DNA from: Oribacterium sp. P6A1
GTDB lineage: Bacteria > Bacillota > Clostridia > Lachnospirales > Lachnospiraceae
Assembly (NCBI RefSeq): GCF_000702885.1
Contig: NZ_JNKO01000005.1
Coordinates: forward strand, 62,001-126,000
Reading direction: 5' to 3'
DNA length: 64,000 bases
The position numbers and the translations under genes are program-made. The notes beneath the pieces were generated by a model that saw only the letters and a list, made by a program, of their open reading frames with translations, was not told the DNA's origin and made no database searches. Positions 317 through 6,413 of the stretch are shown here, in pieces. Position 1 is the first letter of the stretch, and each line of letters opens with the position of its first letter.

Positions 317-1822
317 TCAGCTCCACATCTCCTCAGCTTTATTGTAATACTCCATAAGAACGGGTTTTGTGAGATGATTCACTTCAACATCTGTGTCAAC
401 CTCATCCTTGCCGAATTTGAAAAGGGCGATAACATTGTCATCGGTAATATATTTTGTCTCAACATCAAAAGATATTTCTTCGGAAAGCTCACCTTTGCCT
501 GCCATGTTGAAGCCCCAGTCGCCGAAGGCGGGAACCTCCATGTGATAGGGTTTAACATTGAAACCTTCACTTTCAATGGTCTTGTTGATGCACCAGAAAG
601 CCTTTGTTGCATAGTAAGGGCTTGTGGACTGGACCACCAGTACGCCGGAATCCGAAAGACATCCGGAGCACATTCTGTAAAATATATTTGAATAAAGCTT
701 ATTTAACACTTCTGTGTTAGGATCCGGAAGATCAACGATTATCACATCATACCGTTCTTTACAGTCTTCAAGATACTCATATGCGTCCATGTTAAAGATA
801 TTGAGCTTATCCGAAAGAAGACTGTTTTCGTTTATATCCGTGATATTTTTGTTTGTACTGCATATCCTGATCATCTCCGAGTCAAGATCCACCAGATCTA
901 TCTTCTTTACTTCGGGATATTTCAAGACCTCCCGGACTGCCAGACCGTCACCTCCGCCAAGGATCAGTATATTCTCCCGTTTACTCACCTCATTCATGGG
1001 AACATGGACCAATGCTTCATGATAGCGGTATTCGTCGGACGTCGAGAACTGGCAGTTTCCGTCGATGTACAGCCTTACGTCGTCCCTGTGCTTTGTCATA
1101 ACTATCTTCTGGTACTGAGTCTGCTCAATCAGCACAACTTTATCTCTGTAAAGACCGCTCTCGATGGATTCGGAGATATTGTCAGCCATGACCATGCCTT
1201 CCAGCATAGCAAAAGAAAGAAGGAAAGCCAGTGTGCGAAACACCCTGATATGATCTACTCTTTTCCCGAATCTCCACATGATTAGGAGAGCTGCAAGTAT
1301 ATTCAGAAATCCGCACAAAAAAGAAGTGGCAAAATACCCAAGCTTCGGAAGAAGGATAAGGGGAAATGCAATTGACCCTATGAGTCCGCCAATGTAGTCA
1401 AAACTGAAAATGGATGAAAGCGTCACCTTCAGGTTGTTTTCATCCTGCTCGATGATTCTTGTCATGACCGGAATCTCAGCACCGGCAAAAGCTCCTATTA
1501 TGATTATTTCAAGGTACATGACCAGCGCATAATTGGATATATAGATATTGGCAAGAAAAAGTACCAGTGAGCTGATACCTCCGATAACACCTATTCCGAG
1601 CTCGATGGATACAAAAATGTTGAAAAGATTATTTGAAAAATATTTGGAAACATAAGATCCCAGTCCCAGTGATGCCATGTAAAGTCCGATGGTCACCGAG
1701 TACTGTAGTGTGCTGTTTCCCAAAAGATAAGAACTTACTGCGCTGATGATAAGCTCGTAGCACATGGAACATCCTGAGATTATCAGGGTGGTCAGCATCA
1801 GAAGTCTGTACTTTTTACTCAT
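317..1822 (-). CDS. Membrane-embedded spermidine-synthase-like aminopropyltransferase
   Basis: The 501-residue protein has two parts. Residues 1-212 form about seven hydrophobic segments, starting with a short cytoplasmic MSKKYR. Residues 225-480 are a spermidine/spermine synthase fold with the SAM-type loop GGGDG at 289-293 (LILGGGDGLAVRE) and the acidic motif VDLPDP at 363-368 that carries the catalytic Asp in this family. Soluble SpeE proteins have no membrane domain and are nearer 280-300 residues, so this is the fused, membrane-anchored type. It should transfer an aminopropyl group from decarboxylated SAM to an amine; the acceptor cannot be read from sequence. It is the last gene of a cluster with SpeD, which would supply the decarboxylated SAM, and follows the DUF350 gene by 46 bases. 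A ribosome site AGGAAGG precedes the ATG. Confidence 0.88.
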   Translation of the reverse strand: MSKKYRLLMLTTLIISGCSMCYELIISAVSSYLLGNSTLQYSVTIGLYMASLGLGSYVSKYFSNNLFNIFVSIELGIGVIGGISSLVLFLANIYISNYALVMYLEIIIIGAFAGAEIPVMTRIIEQDENNLKVTLSSIFSFDYIGGLIGSIAFPLILLPKLGYFATSFLCGFLNILAALLIMWRFGKRVDHIRVFRTLAFLLSFAMLEGMVMADNISESIESGLYRDKVVLIEQTQYQKIVMTKHRDDVRLYIDGNCQFSTSDEYRYHEALVHVPMNEVSKRENILILGGGDGLAVREVLKYPEVKKIDLVDLDSEMIRICSTNKNITDINENSLLSDKLNIFNMDAYEYLEDCKERYDVIIVDLPDPNTEVLNKLYSNIFYRMCSGCLSDSGVLVVQSTSPYYATKAFWCINKTIESEGFNVKPYHMEVPAFGDWGFNMAGKGELSEEISFDVETKYITDDNVIALFKFGKDEVDTDVEVNHLTKPVLMEYYNKAEEMWS

Positions 1823-1868
1823 TAAAAAACGCCTTCCTAAAGGACTATAAGTCCATGTATTTGTTAAA

Positions 1869-2285
1869 TTACTGTATTACTCCGCTCACTATGAAAGCCA
1901 CTCCCATGAATATACCAAAAATCATGATGCCGGCAGCTTCATTCTTCCTGCTGAGCTCCACTCCGAAATTGAATTTTCTGTTTACGATATCAACGATAAA
2001 ATAGCCTATCATCAGAGCGACTACACCGATTCCCGCAAATTCCACCGTACTGATAACGCCCTGAAGAAGATCATGTACCTCTGATACTTCAAATGAAATA
2101 ATGGCGGAACGGATGATGAATCCGAGAGCTGAATATATTCCGGCCGAGACCCAGCCTACTGCCTTGTTTCCTTCCTGTATTTCCTTGGGAAAATCCACAG
2201 GAATAAGAAGATCTATGATGAAGTAAGCGATCATCATAACTAAAAGTCCGACTGCAAGATATGCTAAAGTTTCAAGTGCTACCAT
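1869..2285 (-). CDS. DUF350 family membrane protein
   Basis: This small (138-residue) integral membrane protein is built from two similar halves. Each has a TM segment, a short polar loop rich in basic and acidic residues (FPKEIQEGNKAVGW; NFGVELSRKNEAAG) and a second TM segment. That internal duplication is characteristic of DUF350 (YjfL/YshE) proteins, whose biochemical role is unknown but which commonly neighbour DUF4178 and polyamine-synthesis genes. The start has a good GGGAGGA ribosome site. The 153-base gap before it contains a copy of the recurring TTTTTGATACTTAC motif, so DUF350 and the downstream speE-like gene may have their own promoter as well as readthrough from the DUF4178 gene. 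Confidence 0.88.
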   Translation of the reverse strand: MVALETLAYLAVGLLVMMIAYFIIDLLIPVDFPKEIQEGNKAVGWVSAGIYSALGFIIRSAIISFEVSEVHDLLQGVISTVEFAGIGVVALMIGYFIVDIVNRKFNFGVELSRKNEAAGIMIFGIFMGVAFIVSGVIQ

Positions 2286-2355
2286 TTTTATTTCCTCCCA
2301 TAAATAAAATGTTTTGTGTCACCCTCCAAATGAGTCAAACAGACGAGTGAGAGTG

Positions 2356-2373
2356 TGAAGTAAGTATCAAAAA
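2356..2373 (-). promoter_or_regulatory. Copy 2 of recurring motif, upstream of DUF350 gene
   Basis: The minus strand reads TTTTTGATACTTACTTCA. It lies about 70 bases upstream of the DUF350 start in an otherwise featureless 153-base gap inside the polyamine cluster. Confidence 0.45.
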
Positions 2374-2438
2374 CTATATTTAATGTTTGTCAACAGTTGC
2401 TTTCCGGCACCTTTTAACCGGGCTATACGGGGTCTCCC

Positions 2439-3524
2439 TTACTTTCCGCCGCCAAGTCCGCCGCCGGATGAATTTCTGGAATTTATGCTGCTCTGCCTTA
2501 CTGATGACGAATAACTGTCGAAATATCCGTTACCTATATTATGTATGGTGTCCCCGCTGTAGCTTTGATATGCGGATGGTGTCTTGCTGAAAGAAGAAGA
2601 ATCCTTCGTGTAACTGGAGCTGTAATAATGGCTCCTGTACCAGTGTGTGGTTGTACCAGAACTCCTGTAAGGCGAATTATCCGAAGAATAGTTGTACTTT
2701 CTGTTTGAAACCTGTACGTATATCTTTTCAGGTTCGTCTTCAGGATGGTATATGAGACAGTATTCTTTTTTGGTGACTATGGCAATGTCTCCATCCTTGA
2801 CATCATCCTTCTGTGTAACGGATTCCGTGTTACCCTCGACCCCATCTATGATGTCCCTTGCTGTATCATCGGTAGTAGCATACGTTACCAGATTTTCATA
2901 AACATCCGCCTTCTGATTTTCATTTCCGGTGATGGATGTAACATATCCGAAACGCTGATCTTTTTTAAGATAATCGCTGATCAACTTATTGCCGCCAGAG
3001 GGCATAACAAGAATGGCAATGGCACATATAAAGGTTAATACCACAGATACAAAACATATTGCGGCCCCGACCATTCCTACGGAACTGCTTTTTGAAGGCT
3101 CCTCATAGCCCACCACCTTTATTTCATCAAGATCCAGGTATTCACCCATTGAATACTCCGTTCCGTCATCCCATATCTCGGTGGAAAGTATTTTTTCTTC
3201 TTCAGCATCTTCAAATTCAACGAAGTCTGCAGCATCACCGTTTTCCACATCCACGTCTCCGCTGCAGGCCACAACCACCTGATGGCCCTTGTCCACTTCG
3301 TGCCACTCGGGTCCGATATTTCCTCGGACATTATTGGCAGCCCATGAAATCGAGTATTCCTTGTAGACATCATCTACAGAAAGCCATCGCTCCCCCTTAT
3401 TTGTTTTCAATCTGTATTCCACCCAGGTCTTATTACCGTCCTGAGTGTTTTTATACCTGACCCATCCGATAACATGGGCATCCAGTCCCTTTATCTTCAG
3501 GATCGATCCTGTTTTTATATCCAT
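2439..3524 (-). CDS. DUF4178 membrane-anchored protein
   Basis: The 361-residue protein opens with a DUF4178-like beta-rich module (residues 3-70: GSILKIKGLDAHVIGWVRYK, then WVEYRLKTNKGERWLSVD), then a second beta-rich stretch. One hydrophobic segment sits near residues 150-175 (AAICFVSVVLTFICAIAILVM). An exported or luminal part follows, and a low-complexity Ser/Tyr/Gly tail ends in GGGLGGGK. DUF4178 proteins have no proven activity. Their genes recur next to SpeD, DUF350 and membrane SpeE-type genes, as here. A good AGGGGTAGGA ribosome site precedes the ATG, 30 bases after the SpeD stop, so the genes are probably co-transcribed. The Ser-rich tail resembles exposed or glycosylatable linkers, but that is only an impression. 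Confidence 0.82.
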   Translation of the reverse strand: MDIKTGSILKIKGLDAHVIGWVRYKNTQDGNKTWVEYRLKTNKGERWLSVDDVYKEYSISWAANNVRGNIGPEWHEVDKGHQVVVACSGDVDVENGDAADFVEFEDAEEEKILSTEIWDDGTEYSMGEYLDLDEIKVVGYEEPSKSSSVGMVGAAICFVSVVLTFICAIAILVMPSGGNKLISDYLKKDQRFGYVTSITGNENQKADVYENLVTYATTDDTARDIIDGVEGNTESVTQKDDVKDGDIAIVTKKEYCLIYHPEDEPEKIYVQVSNRKYNYSSDNSPYRSSGTTTHWYRSHYYSSSYTKDSSSFSKTPSAYQSYSGDTIHNIGNGYFDSYSSSVRQSSINSRNSSGGGLGGGK

Positions 3525-3554
3525 TTCCTACCCCTGCATAAACAATCAGGAAAA

Positions 3555-3926
3555 TCACATTGACTTAAAGCCACTCAGGCTTTCCTGATTTCCTGTGCTT
3601 ATGTCCCTTTCAATGACTTTGATCTTTACTTCCTTTGCCTGAAAAAGCTCCCTTAGCTTTTCAGCGATTCCATCCACCACCGTATCGGTACATGAAAAAA
3701 TATCTATGGCCGCATAACCGTATTCAGGCCATGTGTGTACCGAAAAATGAGAGGTGGTTATAACAGCAAAGTAAGTAACCCCAATGGGCTCGAATTCGTG
3801 TATACACTCTTCCACTATATCTGCCCCTACATACTTTATAGCACTATGTGCAGCCTCTTTGATTCCCTCAGGATCATCGATGATCTCGCCGCAGCCATAA
3901 AGATCCGCCACAAGCTGCTTCGCCAT
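3555..3926 (-). CDS. speH: S-adenosylmethionine decarboxylase proenzyme (class 1B)
   Basis: This 123-residue proenzyme should self-cleave to make a pyruvoyl cofactor and decarboxylate SAM to give the aminopropyl donor for spermidine-type synthesis. The signature SHFSVHTWPEYGYAAIDIFSC is present. By spacing to the Thermotoga enzyme, Ser59 is the cleavage/pyruvoyl residue, His64 the processing base and Cys79 the catalytic acid. The residue before Ser59 is Thr rather than the usual Glu. The chosen ATG at 3926 has a GAGGAGAGTA ribosome site; an upstream in-frame extension overlaps the zinc-ribbon gene and has no such site. It lies 13 bases after the zinc-ribbon stop and 30 before the DUF4178 gene. 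The symbol speD is also used for this family. Confidence 0.93.
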   Translation of the reverse strand: MAKQLVADLYGCGEIIDDPEGIKEAAHSAIKYVGADIVEECIHEFEPIGVTYFAVITTSHFSVHTWPEYGYAAIDIFSCTDTVVDGIAEKLRELFQAKEVKIKVIERDISTGNQESLSGFKSM

Positions 3927-3939
3927 TTTATACTCTCCT

Positions 3940-4284
3940 CTATTCTTTATTATTATGAAGTGTTCCGTAGTCATCTTCAGCATGGGACCTCGGAGCACCG
4001 CATTTTTTACAGAATGATGCATCTGACCGGTTATATGAATCACAGTACTTACAGAGCCAGTCAGGTCTGTCGGTTGTCTTCTTTGCCTGTTCCTCTGTTA
4101 ATACCGATGATGCCCTTTCCTTAGGCATATAGAAGATCGTATCGATCCCTCTGGATTTCCCGCAATTTGGACAAGTGTCAAACCTGGCCCTGATTTCCTT
4201 TGAACCGCAAAACACACAGTCCCAAAGTCCTTCAATCCTTTTTTCTTCCATACCATCAAAATTCGACATTGAACCGTTCCGCAC
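3940..4284 (-). CDS. Small double zinc-ribbon protein
   Basis: This 114-residue (or shorter) protein has two four-cysteine zinc ribbons: CVFCGSKEIRARFDTCPNCG and CKYCDSYNRSDASFCKKCG. They resemble RanBP2-type ribbons (W-x-C-x2-C ... C-x2-C; LWDCVFC, DWLCKYC), which bind RNA or proteins. The function is unknown. Its position directly ahead of speD suggests a regulatory or scaffold role in the cluster. The start is uncertain. The frame opens at GTG 4284, with ATG alternatives at 4269 and 4251, none with a clear ribosome site. The only strong site (AAAGGAGGGG, about 4315-4325) precedes an in-frame ATG at 4311 that is cut by TGA after five codons. Confidence 0.8.
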   Translation of the reverse strand: MRNGSMSNFDGMEEKRIEGLWDCVFCGSKEIRARFDTCPNCGKSRGIDTIFYMPKERASSVLTEEQAKKTTDRPDWLCKYCDSYNRSDASFCKKCGAPRSHAEDDYGTLHNNKE

Positions 4285-4293
4285 AGATAGCTT

Positions 4294-4311
4294 TCACGAT
4301 TTACATGTCAT
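4294..4311 (-). other. Five-codon in-frame minicistron ahead of zinc-ribbon gene
   Basis: ATG ACA TGT AAA TCG TGA starts four bases after a near-perfect Shine-Dalgarno (AAAGGAGGGG) and is in the same frame as the zinc-ribbon gene. It is either a tiny leader ORF that feeds reinitiation at GTG 4284 or a nonsense change in the native N-terminus. Confidence 0.5.
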
Positions 4312-4342
4312 ATTTCCCCTCCTTTATAATTGATACACCAAA

Positions 4343-4368
4343 GAGCCCCGGATTGTCTTCCGGGGCTC
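4343..4368 (-). terminator. Hairpin between marR-type gene and zinc-ribbon gene
   Basis: A perfect 9-bp GC-rich stem GAGCCCCGG / CCGGGGCTC with an 8-base loop lies just after the MarR stop. On the minus strand only CTTT follows, so termination may be partial. It could act as an attenuator between the regulator and the polyamine genes. Confidence 0.55.
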
Positions 4369-4372
4369 CGTA

Positions 4373-4840
4373 TCAGTCTTTCATCTGTGCCATGCTGTCT
4401 CCCATTCCTTTAAGGATATCGGAAAAAGCACGTATATACTCCGCAGGAATTAAATCGGCTTTTTTGAACATCTCTTTGAACCAGAATTCGTAAATAAAGT
4501 GCGAATACTGCTCATAAACCTTTTCTCCCTCGGAAGTTACGACAGGATAAATATTCTTTTTATTATCGCCTCTGCGCTCCTTAGTCAAAAAACCCTTTGC
4601 TACTAGTTTGTTGACAATGTTTGAAAATGCGCCTCGTGTCACACCTAAACGATTTGCCACCGAAACCATATTGCCGGAGGTATCCTCAAGCAGATACTCT
4701 ATCACCTGAGCTTCCCTGGCTGTAATCTTATACTCTGTTCCGTAATGGAAGGGTGTAACAAAACCTGTACTGGAACTATTACAAAGATAAATGATGCTTT
4801 CCACCATTTCTCTGTATTTTCCCATCCATTCAGTCTTCAT
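4373..4840 (-). CDS. MarR family transcriptional regulator
   Basis: The protein has about 155 residues with the winged-helix core ITAREAQVIEYLLEDTSGNMVSVANRLGVTRGAFSNIVNKLVAKGFLTKERRGDNKKNIYPVVTSEG, which matches the MarR recognition helix and wing. MarR proteins bind palindromes as dimers and are usually released by small ligands. The start at 4840 is preferred because AGAGAGGT sits six bases upstream; an ATG two codons earlier lies almost on the ribosome site. The gene heads the polyamine cluster (separated from the zinc-ribbon gene by a hairpin). A perfect AT-rich palindrome lies in the gap upstream at 5018-5044, so self-regulation is likely. The ligand is unknown; a polyamine would be an attractive guess. 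Confidence 0.9.
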   Translation of the reverse strand: MKTEWMGKYREMVESIIYLCNSSSTGFVTPFHYGTEYKITAREAQVIEYLLEDTSGNMVSVANRLGVTRGAFSNIVNKLVAKGFLTKERRGDNKKNIYPVVTSEGEKVYEQYSHFIYEFWFKEMFKKADLIPAEYIRAFSDILKGMGDSMAQMKD

Positions 4841-5017
4841 ATCCATACCTCTCTAATAAAACTAAAATCAAAAGAGGATAATGCCCCCTAATAGCTAAAG
4901 TTTATATAAAAAATGTTAAAAAACACAGATATGAATATGTTACTTAATTATTTTTCAGATGTAAAGTCACTTATTTTCACTGCAAGTCCTACGAGGTTGA
5001 AGAATTCCTTTACTTGA

Positions 5018-6083: not shown

Positions 6084-6413
6084 CTACACTTCCATGAACT
6101 CAGTGTTTGGTTTTTTCCTGATATGATGATCAAGTGATATGGCAAAGCCTGTTGGTGAAATCATCAAAGCCGATATGGAAGATCCGGTATCGGTAATCTT
6201 GTCTCCCTGGGAATTTTTAAATCCCCGGGATTTCAGAAACTCATAGGCTTCTTCAAAATCATCCATATTCAATTGTTCACGATGTAATACAAAAAAATCT
6301 CTTACACGAAAAATGCATTTCTGATATAATCCTGCACTGCTAAGAAAATATTTGAAGATTTCATGGTAACATTGGAAACGCACATCCTGTTTATATGATG
6401 GTGAAAGTGTCAA
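6084..6413 (-). CDS. Hypothetical protein of about 60-109 residues
   Basis: I do not recognise this protein. The C-terminal half (MDDFEEAYEFLKSRGFKNSQGDKITDTGSS...) looks like a real folded sequence with an alternating helix/turn pattern and no membrane segment. The start is uncertain: the open frame begins at TTG 6413, but that stretch coincides with a copy of the recurring motif (ACCTTTGACACTTTCACC), which elsewhere lies before genes. Translation may therefore begin at GTG 6383 or at the internal ATG near 6266. No strong ribosome site is visible at any of them. The gene ends right at the bidirectional terminator. Confidence 0.45.
   Translation of the reverse strand: MTLSPSYKQDVRFQCYHEIFKYFLSSAGLYQKCIFRVRDFFVLHREQLNMDDFEEAYEFLKSRGFKNSQGDKITDTGSSISALMISPTGFAISLDHHIRKKPNTEFMEV

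What the first reader, a model, noticed from the sequence alone, without database searches (positions are those of the whole stretch)
317..4840. Polyamine-linked membrane cluster with MarR and zinc-ribbon proteins
A MarR regulator, a double zinc-ribbon protein, AdoMet decarboxylase, DUF4178, DUF350 and a spermidine synthase fused to seven TM segments run in one direction with short spacings. DUF350/DUF4178/SpeD/membrane-SpeE associations are known from comparative genomics, but the product is undefined. The membrane fusion suggests aminopropylation of a lipid, cell-envelope molecule or exported substrate rather than free spermidine synthesis. The zinc-ribbon and MarR additions and the lack of an ATP-grasp ligase here look like a distinct variant.
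Basis: partly seen in the sequence, partly recalled or inferred. Interest (0 to 1): 0.75.

Follow-up and report, generated by a model that had tools for sequence, protein, structure and literature searches.

The report
Lysine-tailed partners of membrane aminopropyltransferase
A bacterial gene cluster with a membrane-bound relative of spermidine synthase nearly always also encodes a membrane-anchored protein whose last residue is lysine, which suggests that the enzyme adds a polyamine arm to that protein tail rather than making free spermidine.

Summary
The six genes are real and at the stated coordinates, minus strand, in a Butyrivibrio-like genome. The core SpeD / DUF4178 / DUF350 / 7TM-SpeE (SpeEm) set is known but unexplained. 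MarR looks unrelated: no hit in 80 related loci, and a strong hairpin separates it. The zinc ribbon was found in 3 of those 80, close relatives. New here: the DUF4178 protein ends in ...SVRQSSINSRNSSGGGLGGGK. Across phyla, SpeEm clusters encode an anchored protein (DUF4178 extension, DUF4247 lipoprotein, small one-TM protein, other lipoproteins) ending in lysine, mostly GK or HK: 64 of 65 assessable cluster loci, 0 of 9 SpeEm loci without DUF350/DUF4178. In two SpeEm-lacking genomes the same DUF4247 lipoprotein ends RRR or RGRR. Beside an ATP-grasp peptide-spermidine ligase, tails end in Gly or Ser. SpeEm is modelled as half an MFS transporter plus TM7 and a SpeE domain with its catalytic residues, which topology places outside. 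Best explanation: SpeEm transfers aminopropyl from decarboxylated AdoMet to the tail's C-terminal lysine, building a spermidine-like side chain on an exposed tail. Topology and modification are inferred, not shown. Confidence 0.45.

The parts
317..1822 (-). SpeEm: half-MFS membrane domain (residues 1-188), TM7 (about 192-212) and SpeE-type aminopropyltransferase domain (about 222-501)
1869..2285 (-). DUF350 (YjfL-like) integral membrane protein
   Evidence: Pfam 88 bits; recurrent neighbour
2439..3524 (-). DUF4178 protein: DUF4178 domain (residues 5-131), one TM segment (about 154-173), Ser/Tyr-rich region, lysine tail
2442..2504 (-). C-terminal tail SVRQSSINSRNSSGGGLGGGK of the DUF4178 protein, proposed aminopropyl acceptor (Lys361)
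   Evidence: 119 of 120 listed homologues end in GK
3555..3926 (-). SpeD, class 1b S-adenosylmethionine decarboxylase; only SpeD hit in this genome
3940..4251 (-). double zinc-ribbon protein (longest ORF starts at 4284; ATG 4251 favoured by relatives); accessory, found only in close relatives
4331..4375 (-). strong RNA hairpin between MarR and the operon (short T run)
4373..4846 (-). MarR-family regulator; adjacent but not a conserved component

Best explanation
SpeD makes decarboxylated AdoMet (dcAdoMet). SpeEm, whose SpeE-type domain lies outside the cytoplasmic membrane behind a half-MFS domain, transfers the aminopropyl group to the side-chain amine of the C-terminal lysine of a membrane-anchored Gly/Ser-rich tail. 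Here that tail is the end of the DUF4178 protein; elsewhere it is a DUF4247 protein, another lipoprotein or a small one-TM protein. The product, N-epsilon-(3-aminopropyl)lysine, carries -(CH2)4-NH-(CH2)3-NH2, the atoms of spermidine, so the tail acquires a fixed polyamine cap at the outer membrane face. It would be the counterpart of the spermidine that YgiC/YjfC-type ATP-grasp ligases are reported to join to peptides, where the partner tails end in Gly or Ser. Shown here: gene linkage, near-invariant C-terminal lysine, its covariation with SpeEm, kept catalytic residues, predicted half-MFS fold. Inferred: outside location of the catalytic domain, export of dcAdoMet by the half-MFS domain (perhaps as a dimer) or DUF350, the modification itself, and a role in envelope stress or cation balance.
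Against: No biochemical evidence; no complex could be modelled (single chains only). L062 has DUF350 and SpeEm but no tail found. L174/L175 have SpeEm with a GG tail and ATP-grasp. Two genomes have SpeEm and a lysine tail but no SpeD hit although listed 94-99% complete: G300 and L061/G388, evidently the same organism as G039; L071, L080 and L103 also lack a SpeD hit. The SpeEm-specific R266, which could bind a C-terminal carboxylate, is absent in several tail-bearing homologues (L177-L179 and type-2 forms). Charges flanking the TM of the DUF4178 proteins do not decide topology. Low cysteine in the catalytic domain outside Clostridia is confounded by lineage. If any K end counts, the opposite strand scores 21 of 74, so the test rests on [GH]K. 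I know of no bacterial enzyme using AdoMet or dcAdoMet outside the membrane (recall).
Confidence: 0.45

Rival explanations
1. SpeEm makes a free small aminopropylated polyamine (for example aminopropylagmatine or spermidine) that its MFS half exports; the lysine tail is only a structural or docking tag.
For: SpeE fold with kept catalytic residues, best match Thermus triamine/agmatine aminopropyltransferase; MFS half; 17 of 18 bacterial spermidine synthases aminopropylate agmatine (PMC11107197, abstract passage).
Against: Does not explain a C-terminal lysine that is absent without SpeEm and replaced by Gly or Ser beside an ATP-grasp ligase; bacterial fusions reported uninvolved in spermidine or spermine synthesis (PMC12803844, passage; Li 2019 itself not seen); this genome has a separate spermidine-type operon.
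Confidence: 0.2
2. SpeEm aminopropylates a lipid or cell-wall amine; the tail recruits DUF350, PspA or SpeEm to the membrane.
For: Membrane fusion and PspA linkage in many clusters; exposed basic tail could bind anionic lipid.
Against: I saw no lipid gene recurring in the neighbourhoods that I read (not tested systematically); a docking tag would not need C-terminal lysine to the near exclusion of arginine ([GH]R ends in 2 of 65 loci against [GH]K in 56 of 65, same TM threshold).
Confidence: 0.18
3. SpeEm does modify the tail, but at another atom (C-terminal carboxylate, serine) or on the cytoplasmic side before the tail is exported.
For: Ser-rich tails; SpeD is cytoplasmic, so dcAdoMet is made inside; topology is predicted only.
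Against: The C-terminal lysine is the one residue common to the tail types seen; seven TM segments and charge bias place the catalytic domain outside.
Confidence: 0.12

Closest known systems
SpeD / MFS-spermidine-synthase fusion / DUF350 clusters (Li et al. 2019, Biochem J 476:2579; paper not held, recalled) and the second PspA-CesT/Tir operon group of PMC11237479 (passages)
   Same: Same core: 7TM-SpeE fusion, DUF350, DUF4178, SpeD
   Different: No PspA or CesT/Tir seen next to it here; tail fused to DUF4178; the lysine tail is not mentioned in the passages I saw
E. coli YgiB-YgiC and YjfM-YjfC (DUF1190 with ATP-grasp peptide-spermidine ligase)
   Same: DUF350/PspA context (yjf), anchored Gly/Ser-rich tail protein, polyamine attached to peptide (published title, seen as a citation)
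   Different: Ligase joins ready-made spermidine, tails end in Gly; here no ATP-grasp seen, tail ends in Lys, enzyme is SpeEm with SpeD
Soluble spermidine synthase SpeE
   Same: Fold and catalytic residues
   Different: No N-terminal tetramerisation domain, half-MFS domain instead, acceptor-side residues differ
Hypusine/deoxyhypusine modification of eIF5A (recalled)
   Same: Polyamine-derived arm on a protein lysine
   Different: Proposed arm is aminopropyl from dcAdoMet, on a C-terminal lysine outside the membrane

Membership tests
SpeD / MFS-SpeE fusion / DUF350 / DUF4178 cluster | N-terminal membrane domain fused to SpeE-like domain | tested here: met
SpeD / MFS-SpeE fusion / DUF350 / DUF4178 cluster | Linked SpeD, DUF350 and DUF4178 | tested here: met
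PspA-CesT/Tir operon group (PMC11237479) | PspA and CesT/Tir genes in the operon | tested here: not met
   By eye: no PspA-like ORF among the ORFs listed around the cluster (no profile search was run on them); PspA is present in several relatives of the phylum
Soluble spermidine synthase SpeE | SpeE fold and catalytic aspartates | tested here: met
Soluble spermidine synthase SpeE | Spermine_synt_N tetramerisation domain | tested here: not met
   PF17284 in the soluble SpeE of L130, no hit in the fusion
Soluble spermidine synthase SpeE | Makes spermidine from putrescine | not testable with these tools
   A paper passage says the bacterial fusions do not
YgiC/YjfC peptide-spermidine ligase systems | ATP-grasp GSP_synth ligase in the cluster | tested here: not met
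   None of the six cluster proteins nor, by eye, the neighbours; the rest of the genome was not searched for GSP_synth
YgiC/YjfC peptide-spermidine ligase systems | Partner tail ends in Gly | tested here: not met
   Window tail ends GGGK
Class 1b AdoMet decarboxylase SpeD | Processing and catalytic Ser63, His68, Cys83 (T. maritima numbering) | tested here: met
   [21 protein letters not shown], spacing as in the PMC10407285 passage; TIGR03330 over cut-off
Class 1b AdoMet decarboxylase SpeD | Decarboxylates AdoMet, not ornithine or arginine | not testable with these tools
   Neofunctionalised SpeD exist

The most novel reading that the evidence does not exclude
Bacteria of more than ten phyla (by record titles and the phylum searches) carry an extracytoplasmic aminopropyltransferase, fed by a half-MFS domain that exports decarboxylated AdoMet, which builds a spermidine-like side chain on the C-terminal lysine of anchored tail proteins: a hypusine-like modification outside the membrane, chemically convergent with ATP-grasp peptide spermidinylation.
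Probability: 0.35. Interest if true: 0.93.

Novelty: new variant of a known kind. Interest (0 to 1): 0.77.

Why it matters
The acceptor of the widespread SpeD/MFS-SpeE/DUF350 clusters has been open since it was reported that the fusion does not make spermidine. A near-invariant C-terminal lysine on a co-encoded anchored protein turns that question into one mass-spectrometry experiment. If right, it adds a post-translational modification, a case of dcAdoMet chemistry outside the cytoplasm, and a single logic for two unrelated enzyme systems (SpeEm and ATP-grasp ligases) that cap an envelope tail with polyamine.

Tried and rejected
MarR as a component: rejected (no hit in 80 loci; hairpin). Zinc ribbon as a defining part: narrow (3 of 80 loci, and L131). 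'No separate spermidine synthase in the genome': first read at E 1e-30, then corrected; a soluble SpeE lies at G000:C36. R266 as a marker of tail-bearing enzymes: rejected. Cysteine depletion as proof of outside location: only suggestive (mean 1.0 in 48 SpeEm from many phyla against 2.8 in 18 soluble SpeE; 5 of the 18 also have none). Flank charges of the DUF4178 TM: undecided. Viral contigs: no relatives. Neofunctionalised SpeD (arginine or ornithine decarboxylase): not excluded, judged unlikely beside SpeEm. Pfam and NCBIfam give no family over cut-off for the small one-TM carriers (L064, L073, L097, L109, L234) and type-2 lipoproteins (L238-L241) tested (L240 had only a sub-threshold EAGR_box). 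Foldseek alone gave no match below E 0.001 for the membrane domain; the MFS assignment rests on the second-look alignment. In the DUF1190 survey 7 of 25 picked frames look like wrong frames or unrelated tails; none of the 25 ends in K. The profile named DUF4178 in my scripts drifted after and also picks up DUF4247 proteins, so 'DUF4178' labels in scripts are not all that domain.
Full report
Observation. The minus strand of window 317-4846 encodes, in order of transcription, a MarR regulator, a zinc-ribbon protein, SpeD, a DUF4178 protein, a DUF350 protein and a membrane-fused SpeE, here called SpeEm. The window is G000:C5:62001-126000 of a 3.7-Mb genome; the named close homologues of SpeEm are from Butyrivibrio and other Lachnospiraceae and a 96%-identical copy is in Oribacterium sp. 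C9. The genes that follow and precede the cluster look unrelated (by eye).

What belongs together. I fetched 80 loci (the best 80 of 580 confirmed relatives) with up to 8 kb on each side. SpeD, DUF4178 and DUF350 recur around SpeEm in many phyla; the zinc ribbon was found in 3 of 80 (L033, L034, L035) and MarR in 0 of 80, some loci ending close to the cluster. The 83%-identical cluster L131 has the zinc ribbon and no MarR in its ORF list. A hairpin of -28 kcal/mol (z -4.95) lies between MarR and the rest. In 299 genomes of the same phylum full-length SpeEm is in 10 and DUF4178 in 15, with 9 shared (Fisher p 1e-12). In 80 genomes of the same family SpeEm is in 4 and any SpeD in 12, so the cluster is patchy.

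The tail. The DUF4178 protein of the window has one TM segment and ends in SVRQSSINSRNSSGGGLGGGK. Of the 120 listed homologues (of 428 found) 119 end in GK; the exception, P0201, has a different extension. All 144 tail-bearing proteins of that kind examined have exactly one TM segment. In other phyla the same kind of end sits on other proteins: a DUF4247 protein, often with a lipobox (L118-L121; L212, L213, L215), a 45-100-residue protein with one TM segment upstream of DUF350 or SpeEm ending in YHK, GGK and the like, or unclassified lipoproteins. What they share is the C-terminal lysine, nearly always after Gly or His.

Counts. Of the 80 loci I set aside 6 cut off by contig ends (L041, L043, L055, L066, L082, L108). 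Of the remaining 74, 65 have DUF4178 and/or DUF350 within 4.5 kb on the same strand and 9 have neither. A uniform scan for an ORF with a hydrophobic segment and a [GH]K end within 2.6 kb upstream or 1.6 kb downstream finds 56 of 65 (threshold 1.5) or 62 of 65 (1.0), against 0 of 9 loci without DUF4178/DUF350, and 1 of 74 or 2 of 74 in the same interval on the other strand; the same scan for [GH]R gives 2 of 65 or 3 of 65. If any K end is allowed the opposite strand gives 21 of 74 or 33 of 74, so the contrast rests on [GH]K. L076 and L109 have the tail with a weaker hydrophobic score, hence 64 of 65; L062 is a true exception. Among TM-bearing ORFs on the minus strand and far from the cluster, [GH]K ends occur in 6 of 1502 and 1 of 405.

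Later sets. Bacteroidota (phylum of G401): 12 of 198 genomes have SpeEm, one already in the first set; of 11 new, 9 have the K tail and 2 (L174, L175) have a tail ending GG beside an ATP-grasp ligase and SpeD. Pseudomonadota (phylum of G396): 28 of 249, one already known; of 27 new, 23 have the K tail, two of these as GRIK, and 4 (L182, L192, L201, L202) have no DUF350/DUF4178 found and no tail. Actinomycetota (phylum of G857): 16 of 246 genomes, one already known, 17 matches in all; of 16 new matches 9 have the K tail, three as GGTK, and 7 have neither DUF350/DUF4178 nor tail found. Together 41 of 54 new matches have the lysine tail. In these sets I picked [GH]K frames without a TM threshold and read the rest by eye; in the flanks of L169-L208 such frames occur in 27 of 40 loci on the same strand and 4 of 40 on the other. 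Eight carriers that showed no anchor in the first flanks were fetched again: 7 begin with a lipobox and 1 with a TM segment, and DUF350 is adjacent in 7 of 8. I did not test formally whether any of these genomes, apart from the centres, is also in the first 80.

Natural controls. In four same-phylum genomes of one family (f29, unnamed) PspA, DUF350 and DUF4178 stand together without SpeEm; in the two that also have the DUF4247 lipoprotein it ends RRR and RGRR. Over the 299 genomes DUF4247 ends GK in 9 of 9 with SpeEm and in 0 of 2 without (p 0.018). In E. coli K-12, YgiC and YjfC are annotated as peptide-spermidine ligases and their neighbours YgiB and YjfM end SRSMGG and GHWGG. In 25 DUF1190 matches from 22 of 200 Pseudomonadota genomes none of the picked frames ends in K; of 17 that I judged sensible and that have ATP-grasp next door 13 end in G and 4 in S. 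L240 shows the exchange directly: PspA, DUF2170, SpeEm, DUF350, a lipoprotein ending RFGGK, and SpeD. The tail end thus follows the enzyme: Gly or Ser with the ATP-grasp ligase, Lys with SpeEm.

SpeD. Of 34 genomes tested (33 loci without a same-strand SpeD within 4.5 kb, and L084, which has one) 30 have a SpeD hit somewhere in the genome, one of them a 56-residue fragment; all 7 Clostridia among them (L035, L039, L040, L042, L044, L048, L049) have one. Four have none: L061, L071, L080, L103. L061 is evidently the organism of G039, listed as 99% complete, and one family-set genome, G300 (94%), has SpeEm and a lysine tail but no SpeD hit; these are against a strict need for SpeD, unless a distant decarboxylase was missed. 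The window genome has one SpeD, that of the cluster, and a separate operon of a basic amino acid decarboxylase (weak hits), soluble SpeE, carboxynorspermidine synthase-like gene (403 bits, cut-off 800), nspC, aguA and aguB, which can make spermidine by the carboxy route without SpeD (pathway knowledge).

Mechanism. The side chain of lysine is an aminobutyl group, the kind of acceptor that most spermine synthases tested prefer (PMC11107197, passages). Aminopropylation would give -(CH2)4-NH-(CH2)3-NH2, the atoms of spermidine, at the end of an exposed tail. An ATP-grasp enzyme that joins spermidine to a C-terminal glycine would give nearly the same end group. I therefore propose that SpeEm and YgiC/YjfC-type ligases are two routes to a polyamine-capped envelope tail. 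The biological role is open; PspA linkage points to membrane stress.

Literature. DUF4178 or DUF350 is in 35 papers, 30 listed, of which I judged one relevant (PMC11237479, passages read). Li et al. 2019 is not held; I rely on recall of its abstract and on a passage of PMC12803844. Pederick 2023 was seen only as a reference in PMC12568646. No paper holds the five 'aminopropyllysine' terms searched, and the listings showed no title or abstract on such a lysine tail; subscription papers are mostly outside this library.

Noticed in passing
L130:4141-11193 (G000:C36): Operon with a basic amino acid decarboxylase-like gene, soluble SpeE, carboxynorspermidine synthase-like, nspC, aguA, aguB; a SpeE with no SpeD beside it; similar gene sets in L135 and L136, and a decarboxylase-SpeE pair in L134.
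   Followed up: partly
L227:5535-9226 and L228:5123-8843: Bacteroidota-set loci with both SpeEm and a divergent SpeD / ATP-grasp ligase / GG-tailed membrane protein set.
   Followed up: partly
L200-L208, L238-L241, L284-L286: A second, 575-620-residue type of SpeEm in Pseudomonadota, with lipoproteins ending RFGGK, RRGK, SRGK and the like; PspA and DUF2170 beside it in L240.
   Followed up: partly
L062:3304-5268: Only assessable cluster locus of the first set (DUF350 plus SpeEm, Synergistaceae) without a recognisable lysine tail.
   Followed up: no
L152, L153, L155, L157: PspA / DUF350 / DUF4178 (sometimes DUF4247) clusters without SpeEm in one unnamed family (f29); their function is also unknown.
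   Followed up: partly
L271-L277: Actinomycetota membrane SpeE relatives without DUF350/DUF4178 or tail found, matching only residues 8 to about 430-450; probably a different function.
   Followed up: no
window 6084-6413 (-) and L002:1900-2280 (-): Two similar small VOC-like proteins flank the cluster about 14 kb apart.
   Followed up: no
L002:10793-12085 (-): Next gene downstream of the cluster: lipoprotein signal (LTAC) on a HAD-phosphatase-like protein (by eye).
   Followed up: no
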